64,000 bases of DNA from NCBI GenBank assembly GCA_946186505.1, contig CAMHNI010000008.1, positions 48,333-112,332 of the forward strand, given 5' to 3'. The stretch is from an uncultured Prevotellaceae bacterium (GTDB lineage Bacteria; Bacteroidota; Bacteroidia; Bacteroidales; Bacteroidaceae). The position numbers and the translations under genes were made by a program. Position 1 is the stretch's first letter, and every line of letters starts with the position of its first letter. The notes beneath the pieces are model-generated. The model was not told the origin of the DNA. It searched no databases and worked only from the letters and a program-made list of their open reading frames with translations. Of the stretch, positions 16,239 through 17,027 are shown one piece after another.

Positions 16239-17027
16239 ATGGCACAGATAGACGAATTCTTCTTTGACACGAACCGCGTGGAGGGCATCACCGAGGCCGA
16301 CTACCAGCGAGCGCAGCCTTACATCGAGGCGGCGCAGGCTTTCGCGCAGTCCACCTACCAGAGCATCTATATCATCGACTACTTCCGCAAGAACTTCCTC
16401 TATGTGTCGGACAATCCTCTCTTCCTCTGCGGCCACACCGCCGACGAGGTGCGACAGATGGGCTACGGTTTCTACATCAACAACGTGCCTGCCGACGAAC
16501 AGCCGATGCTCACCGAACTGAACCGTGCGGGCTTCCGTGCTTTCGACGACGTGCCGCTGGCCGACCGCCGACGCTGCGTGATGTCCTACGACTTCCACAT
16601 CCTCACCTCTGACCGTCCCCTGCTCATCAACCACAAGATTACGCCCCTTGTGCTCACGGCTGAAAGGCAACGGGTAGGCGACGGTACGTCGGGAATTGGT
16701 CGTGCCTGGCTCGCCCTCTGCACCGTTTCGCTCTCATCGCACAAGGAGGCCGGGCAGATTCGTTTCCGCATTCTGGGGCAGAGCGGCTATCGCCAGTATT
16801 CGCTCACCGCCCACCGTTGGCAACCCTGCGAGGGCATCACGCTCACCCCCGAGGAGAAACAGGTGCTCACCCTCTCGGCACAGGGCTACACGATGAAGGA
16901 AATCAGCGACCATATCTGCCGCTCGTTCGACACCGTGAAGTTCTACCGTCGTCAATTGTTCGAGAAACTCGACGTCGCCAACATCACCGAGGCCATCGCC
17001 TTTGCCACCAACTACGGCCTTTTGTAA
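16239..17027 (+). CDS. LuxR-type HTH regulator carrying an in-frame hairpin insertion
   Basis: C-terminal LTPEEKQVLTLSAQGYTMKEISDHICRSFDTVKFYRRQLFEKLDVANITEAIAFA; internal ERQRVGDGTSGI is encoded by a family A hairpin. Confidence 0.85.
   Translation: MAQIDEFFFDTNRVEGITEADYQRAQPYIEAAQAFAQSTYQSIYIIDYFRKNFLYVSDNPLFLCGHTADEVRQMGYGFYINNVPADEQPMLTELNRAGFRAFDDVPLADRRRCVMSYDFHILTSDRPLLINHKITPLVLTAERQRVGDGTSGIGRAWLALCTVSLSSHKEAGQIRFRILGQSGYRQYSLTAHRWQPCEGITLTPEEKQVLTLSAQGYTMKEISDHICRSFDTVKFYRRQLFEKLDVANITEAIAFATNYGLL
16662..16697. repeat. Hairpin family A copy (core GACGGTACGTC) inside the LuxR-type CDS
   Basis: GAAAGGCAACGGGTAGGCGACGGTACGTCGGGAATT. Confidence 0.65.

What the first reader, a model, noticed from the sequence alone, without database searches (positions are those of the whole stretch)
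16662..16697. In-frame palindromic element inside a LuxR-type regulator
gaaaggcaacgggtaggcgacggtacgtcgggaatt is read in frame as ERQRVGDGTSGI between VLTA and GRAWLALCTVSLSS. The same element in ORF 19498 reads ERPRVGDQRSGM in the same frame. This parallels in-frame Rickettsia palindromic elements; I know of no established Bacteroidales equivalent, though I could not search.
Basis: partly seen in the sequence, partly recalled or inferred. Interest (0 to 1): 0.8.

Follow-up and report, generated by a model that had tools for sequence, protein, structure and literature searches.

The report
In-frame mobile hairpin element in Prevotella
A 33-base jumping DNA hairpin has inserted itself in many genes of rumen Prevotella bacteria, adding about 11 amino acids without breaking the reading frame, much like the palindromic elements known from Rickettsia but in another phylum and with a sharply defined insertion site.

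Summary
Confirmed and extended. The 36 bases at 16662-16697 hold a 33-nt insert, AAGGCAACGGGTAGGC-GACGGTACGTC-GGGAAT (16664-16696), that splits one GAT codon (GA^T) of a LuxR-type gene. A homolog about 92% identical joins LTAD directly to GRAWLALC. Empty sites at DNA level in uxuA and dgt show a clean insertion after GA, with no target duplication and no deletion. The window's other copy (ORF 19498) is also absent from 91%-identical homologs. About 40 copies sit in this genome. The element occurs in 152 of 399 sampled genomes of the genus and in 0 of 295 other Bacteroidales. Among 188 distinct copies, the inner stem covaries with Watson-Crick pairs almost only. All 71 intragenic copies add a multiple of three bases; odd lengths occur only outside genes. 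Reading frames follow the supply of GA^G sites, minus the two frames with a stop codon. So this is a non-autonomous mobile element inserting at GA^G; purifying selection keeps translatable insertions. It works like Rickettsia palindromic elements but is unrelated in sequence, shorter, and in Bacteroidota. The mobilising enzyme is unknown: Y1 transposase is absent from this genome and no inspected Y1 gene was flanked by the element. Translation is inferred.

The parts
16239..17027 (+). LuxR/GerE-type regulator gene (262 aa) carrying the insertion; HTH at aa 201-256
   Evidence: ORF; Pfam GerE E=1.1e-12; 1399 homologs
16664..16696 (+). inserted 33-nt element, AAGGCAACGGGTAGGCGACGGTACGTCGGGAAT
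   Evidence: gap against LuxR homologs P0002/P0004; boundaries set by uxuA and dgt empty sites
16662..16663 (+). target dinucleotide GA (first two bases of the split GAT codon; third base at 16697)
16674..16677 (+). GTAG tetranucleotide one base 5' of the hairpin (REP-like feature)
16679..16691 (+). 5-bp stem with 3-nt loop, CGACG-GTA-CGTCG; stem sequence covaries across copies
19498..19881 (+). 127-aa ORF of a conserved Prevotella family without Pfam/NCBIfam match, carrying a second in-frame copy
19554..19586 (+). 33-nt element in ORF 19498 (AAGGCCACGGGTAGGCGACCAAAGGTCGGGAAT); 91%-identical homologs lack it
9392..9423 (+). copy with a 32-nt core (not a multiple of three), GAGCTTGCTC hairpin, not scored as intragenic
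10378..10439 (+). nested copy: a 30-nt short-hairpin element (10390-10419) inside a variant element
22689..22717 (+). copy whose right end is replaced by another repeat (GCTTGCTACC..GGGACGCAAG)

Best explanation
A non-autonomous miniature mobile element of the genus Prevotella (GTDB sense). Shown: the core is AAGGCNACGGGTAGGC, a short hairpin of variable sequence, and GGGAAT (33 nt; 30, 32 and 36-nt forms exist); it inserts cleanly after GA, mostly between GA and G, with no target duplication and no loss of bases. Supported: insertion is indifferent to genes; those inside genes persist only if their length is a multiple of three and the frame they are read in has no stop codon, so the protein gains about 11 mostly polar residues, in the LuxR case in a turn between two beta strands. 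Inferred: the unit of recognition is a DNA hairpin, and an enzyme supplied in trans, not yet identified, moves it. It is mostly selfish DNA tolerated as a protein linker.
For: Empty sites: LuxR, ORF 19498, uxuA against 11 relatives and dgt against 13 at DNA level. Copies: 47 sites at up to 2 mismatches in G000; 188 distinct copies over all loci. Length: 0 of 71 intragenic against 22 of 117 other copies are not 3n, p=2.2e-5. Frames: the four open frames 45/12/8/4 fit GA^G supply (chi-square p=0.79) while the two stop-bearing frames are depleted, 2 of 71 against about 29% expected, p=4e-8. Target: G after the insert in 51 of 57 coding copies. Stem: 64-68 of 68 distinct 35-mers paired at every position, pair 20:26 as GC 32, CG 23, AT 9, TA 2, with 2 wobble pairs in total. 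Coding copies are richer in CAA (Gln) at the variable third codon, p=0.002. AlphaFold model: insert is a low-confidence loop between strands 126-139 and 156-165. Distribution: 152/399 in genus, 0/295 elsewhere in the order.
Against: No mobilising gene was found. No new insertion was seen to happen, and no RNA or protein data were available. Copies were collected with patterns that fix the outer arms, so conservation of the arms, including the leading GA, is partly imposed by the search. Coding frames were called from codon usage in draft genomes, and copies were treated as independent although some loci may share ancestry. Two pairs of loci (L015/L188, L008/L230) share a site with different hairpins, which may be inheritance with hairpin turnover rather than fresh insertion.
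Confidence: 0.88

Rival explanations
1. A REP element moved by a REP-associated or IS200-like Y1 (HUH) transposase: GTAG next to a hairpin, cut and joined as single-stranded DNA after a short target, leaving no duplication.
For: GTAG lies one base 5' of the hairpin; clean insertion after a short target with no duplication is how IS200/IS605 elements insert (established knowledge); stem pairing almost free of wobble suggests DNA-level recognition; Y1_Tnp presence is weakly associated with copy number in the genus (odds ratio 1.9 to 4.1).
Against: No Y1_Tnp in the window's genome (93% complete); none of 40 Y1 loci inspected carries the element nearby; seven genomes with 12 or more copies lack Y1_Tnp; insertion starts 10 nt upstream of GTAG and the stem is 3-5 bp, below the 7-20 nt used to define REPs (PMC6006769). 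The association may reflect general mobile-element load.
Confidence: 0.3
2. The hairpin is skipped during translation (bypassing) or removed from the RNA, so the protein is unchanged.
For: A hairpin inside a coding sequence resembles known bypass segments in outline.
Against: If skipped, neither length nor stops would matter, yet all 71 intragenic copies are 3n and stop-bearing frames are depleted; CAA is enriched in coding copies.
Confidence: 0.03
3. A beneficial, selected peptide module that the cell uses to diversify proteins, not just tolerated DNA.
For: Polar linker; same genes and nearby sites hit repeatedly (LuxR at two sites, ORF 19498 at two sites, VanW, SufS).
Against: Frame use fits random insertion plus removal of harmful cases with no excess for the ERxRVG frame; antisense and other-frame peptides are equally tolerated; many copies are non-genic.
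Confidence: 0.07
4. The residues are an ancestral loop of the LuxR family, not an insertion.
For: None beyond the residues being in frame.
Against: Homologs at all distances lack it and the same nucleotide element is dispersed in unrelated genes.
Confidence: 0.01

Closest known systems
Rickettsia palindromic elements (RPE families; also Wolbachia)
   Same: Dispersed repeats with a palindromic part, found in and outside genes, inserted in frame in unrelated functional proteins, in solvent-exposed places (PMC10969869, PMC3767692).
   Different: RPEs are given as about 100-150 bp in Rickettsia, a different phylum, with other sequence; here 33 nt, a GA^G target with DNA-level empty sites, and covarying hairpins, in Prevotella.
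Intragenic GTAG and CGTC REP elements (Di Nocera 2013, PMC3733652)
   Same: Short dispersed hairpins, some inside ORFs and translatable; GTAG next to the stem.
   Different: Stem of 3-5 bp, 10 conserved nt upstream of GTAG inside the insert, no RAYT link found, and a large intragenic share.
IS200/IS605 and REP-associated Y1 transposase elements
   Same: Hairpin-bearing, insertion after a short target without duplication.
   Different: No Y1 gene in this genome and none beside the element where inspected.
MITEs
   Same: Non-autonomous, short, dispersed.
   Different: No terminal inverted repeats at the ends and no target duplication.

Membership tests
Rickettsia palindromic elements | dispersed palindromic repeat inserted in frame in unrelated protein genes | tested here: met
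   only the inner part is palindromic
Rickettsia palindromic elements | Rickettsiales host | tested here: not met
   host is Prevotella
Rickettsia palindromic elements | sequence homology to a described RPE family | tested here: inconclusive
   no NCBIfam RPE-type domain on the two window proteins; RPE sequences were not aligned directly
Rickettsia palindromic elements | length about 100-150 bp | tested here: not met
   30-36 nt
REP (GTAG) elements | GTAG/GTGG 0-2 nt 5' of a hairpin | tested here: met
   GTAG-G-stem
REP (GTAG) elements | basal stem of 7 or more paired nt | tested here: not met
   5 bp, or 3 bp in the short form
REP (GTAG) elements | cognate Y1 transposase in genome, flanked by the element | tested here: not met
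   negative in one 93% complete genome and 40 loci
MITE | terminal inverted repeats and target-site duplication | tested here: not met
   empty sites show neither
Known structured RNA | match to an Rfam family | tested here: not met
   only tmRNA elsewhere in the window
Mobile element (general) | movement observed | not testable with these tools
   inferred from empty and filled alleles

The most novel reading that the evidence does not exclude
A currently active, hairpin-recognising mobility system with an unknown enzyme, confined mainly to Prevotella, that scatters 33-nt coding inserts at GA^G and so supplies 11-residue linkers to proteins across a third of the genus.
Probability: 0.35. Interest if true: 0.85.

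Novelty: new variant of a known kind. Interest (0 to 1): 0.72.

Why it matters
In-frame palindromic elements have long been known mainly from obligate intracellular Rickettsiales, and how they move and why they sit in frame has stayed open. Here is an independent case in an abundant, culturable, free-living gut and rumen genus, with clean empty alleles, a defined GA^G target, and frame statistics that explain in-frame placement by random insertion and purifying selection alone. It makes the question open to experiment. It also matters for annotation: these peptides are inserts in probably hundreds of Prevotella proteins, and searches of the held paper library found no description.

Tried and rejected
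A first search of relatives used a pattern with one base too many in the spacer and found nothing even in the own genome; it was discarded and repeated correctly. Y1 transposase as mobiliser: absent here, not flanking elsewhere. A coding programme that prefers the ERxRVG frame: rejected because GA^G supply explains the open frames. The impression from the own genome that all coding copies are in one frame weakened once 188 copies from many genomes showed antisense and other open frames. Restoration of a palindrome at non-genic sites: 13 of 114 against 3-8 in re-paired controls, too weak to lean on. Paired copies flanking an autonomous gene: none recognised. PDB alignments for UxuA, GSIII and glycogen synthase were too distant to show a clean gap; dGTPase showed one.

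Full report
OBSERVATION. The 36-nt stretch GAAAGGCAACGGGTAGGCGACGGTACGTCGGGAATT is at 16662-16697 and is translated as ERQRVGDGTSGI in a 262-aa ORF (16239-17027) with a C-terminal GerE/LuxR HTH. A second copy in ORF 19498-19881 is read in the same frame. The joint pattern occurs twice in the window against 0.01 expected. More copies with other hairpins lie at 9392, 10378 (nested) and 22689.

IT IS AN INSERTION. A protein search gave 1399 homologs of the LuxR protein. The close homolog P0002 (about 92% by BLASTP) and others read LVLTAD-GRAWLALC, so one aspartate codon was replaced by ER...GI, an 11-codon gain. In other homologs the element sits at the same turn with another hairpin (P0005, P0049) or at a second aspartate, FHITHGD to FHITHGERLRVGDQRSGI (P0013, P0036), hence separate events in one gene. 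ORF 19498 behaves the same: 24 of 120 homologs carry the ERxRVG insert, P0127 and P0129 at 91% identity read WAVVGICE-NARQ, and P0164 and P0177 have a second insert at D-E-AAAV.

EXACT BOUNDARIES. In uxuA (mannonate dehydratase) the own genome reads TTC GA[AAGGCTACGGGTAGGCGACGGAACGTCGGGAAT]G AAA, while eleven relatives read GAG AAG, GAG AAA or GAA AAG at this place. In dgt (dGTPase) a decayed 36-nt copy reads GAC GA[AAGGCAACGCTTAGGCGAGTCGCCAGACTCTGGAAT]C CGC against GAC GAC CGC or close variants in thirteen relatives. No base is lost or duplicated. Across 57 coding copies the base after the insert is G in 51, with purines following; 5' of GA there is little information (the leading GA was part of the search pattern, so its conservation is shown by the empty sites, not by this count).

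COPY NUMBER AND SPREAD. The own genome has 47 places matching the left arm at up to two mismatches against 7 for the reversed control. Host genes include glycogen synthase, type III glutamine synthetase, SufS, UxuA, dGTPase, an SNF-type transporter, SusC-type receptors and an NRPS-like ORF with two copies (some names by PDB relatives, the others by my reading of the sequence). With a strict pattern 152 of 399 genomes of the genus have copies, up to 47, and none of 295 other sampled Bacteroidales genomes does. Named GTDB contigs are mostly rumen Prevotella, with a few labelled Bacteroidaceae, Bacteroidales and Paludibacteraceae. Nineteen stretches lie in IMG/VR contigs.

HAIRPIN. Of 68 distinct 35-nt forms, the five stem pairs are Watson-Crick in 64 to 68; pair 20:26 is GC in 32, CG in 23, AT in 9, TA in 2; wobble pairs are two in all. 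So the stem is kept while its sequence changes, and near absence of G-T pairs points to a DNA rather than an RNA requirement (inference).

FRAMES. Coding frames were assigned by codon usage on the excised flanks of 188 distinct copies: 71 intragenic. All 71 have a net length of a multiple of three; all 22 non-3n copies are outside genes (Fisher p=2.2e-5). By frame: sense GA^N 45, sense N-GA^ 8, antisense 12, 4 and 2, and 0 in the sense frame that contains TAG. GA^G-purine-purine sites in long Prevotella ORFs predict 41.5, 8.0, 13.9 and 5.6 for the four open frames (p=0.79), whereas the two stop-bearing frames should hold about 29% and hold 2 of 71 (p=4e-8). The shared frame in the window is therefore the most likely outcome of random insertion at GA^G followed by loss of damaging cases. 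In coding copies the variable codon is CAA more often than outside genes (13/45 against 10/117, p=0.002), a sign of selection on the peptide.

PLACE IN THE PROTEIN. An AlphaFold model on 50 homologs (mean pLDDT 90) puts the insert, the only stretch below 50, between strands 126-139 and 156-165.

MECHANISM. Shown: insert, target, no duplication, hairpin covariation, constraint. Inferred: movement in trans by an enzyme that recognises a DNA hairpin. The Y1/HUH route fits the target logic, but the own genome has no Y1_Tnp, about half of the genus has one, the association with copy number is modest and no inspected Y1 locus bears the element. I leave the enzyme open.

COMPARISON. It works like Rickettsia palindromic elements (PMC10969869; PMC3767692) and like the intragenic REPs of PMC3733652, but does not meet the length, host or stem criteria of either. 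Paper searches in the held library found no report for Prevotella; subscription papers are not covered.

Noticed in passing
L300:1500-1650 (G141 dgt): The dgt gene of another species has, at the same loop, a different in-frame palindrome, GGAGGACAGCCCACGATAGGGCAGTCCTCC, suggesting further families of coding palindromes and a tolerant hot spot.
   Followed up: partly
P0022, P0177 (homologs of the 16239 and 19498 ORFs): The element itself carries an extra 10-aa segment LAKASE(P/Q)VRA at the same internal position in two unrelated proteins, as if a second small element had inserted into the first.
   Followed up: no
10378-10439: One element nested in a variant of the same element (GGGAGGGC instead of GGGTAGGC).
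   Followed up: partly
15971-16128: Two tandem 79-nt copies with inverted parts (AGCAGAGTGAAGCTCGCTTCGACTCTGC) upstream of the LuxR gene.
   Followed up: no
11243, 16139, 19926, 22575: Four copies of another dispersed repeat, GAAACTAGTTTCAGAGTTTCACCCTCGGCGACC..GCCGAGGG, in gaps between genes.
   Followed up: no
20064-20093 and 22728-22757: Dispersed repeat TCGCTTGCTACCNNCGGGACGCAAGAA; a relative of it replaces the right end of the element copy at 22689.
   Followed up: no
20276-20799 and 21811-22333: Two related toxin-antitoxin-like gene pairs in minus orientation, partly inside a duplicated stretch of 300 nt.
   Followed up: no
L103:1013-2207, minus strand: An ORF that looks like amidophosphoribosyltransferase appears to carry the element in antisense, read as IPAEAPTRSLS.
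   Followed up: partly
L008/L230 and L015/L188: Orthologous genes in two species have the element at the same site with different hairpins: either hairpin turnover after one insertion or repeated insertion at one site.
   Followed up: partly
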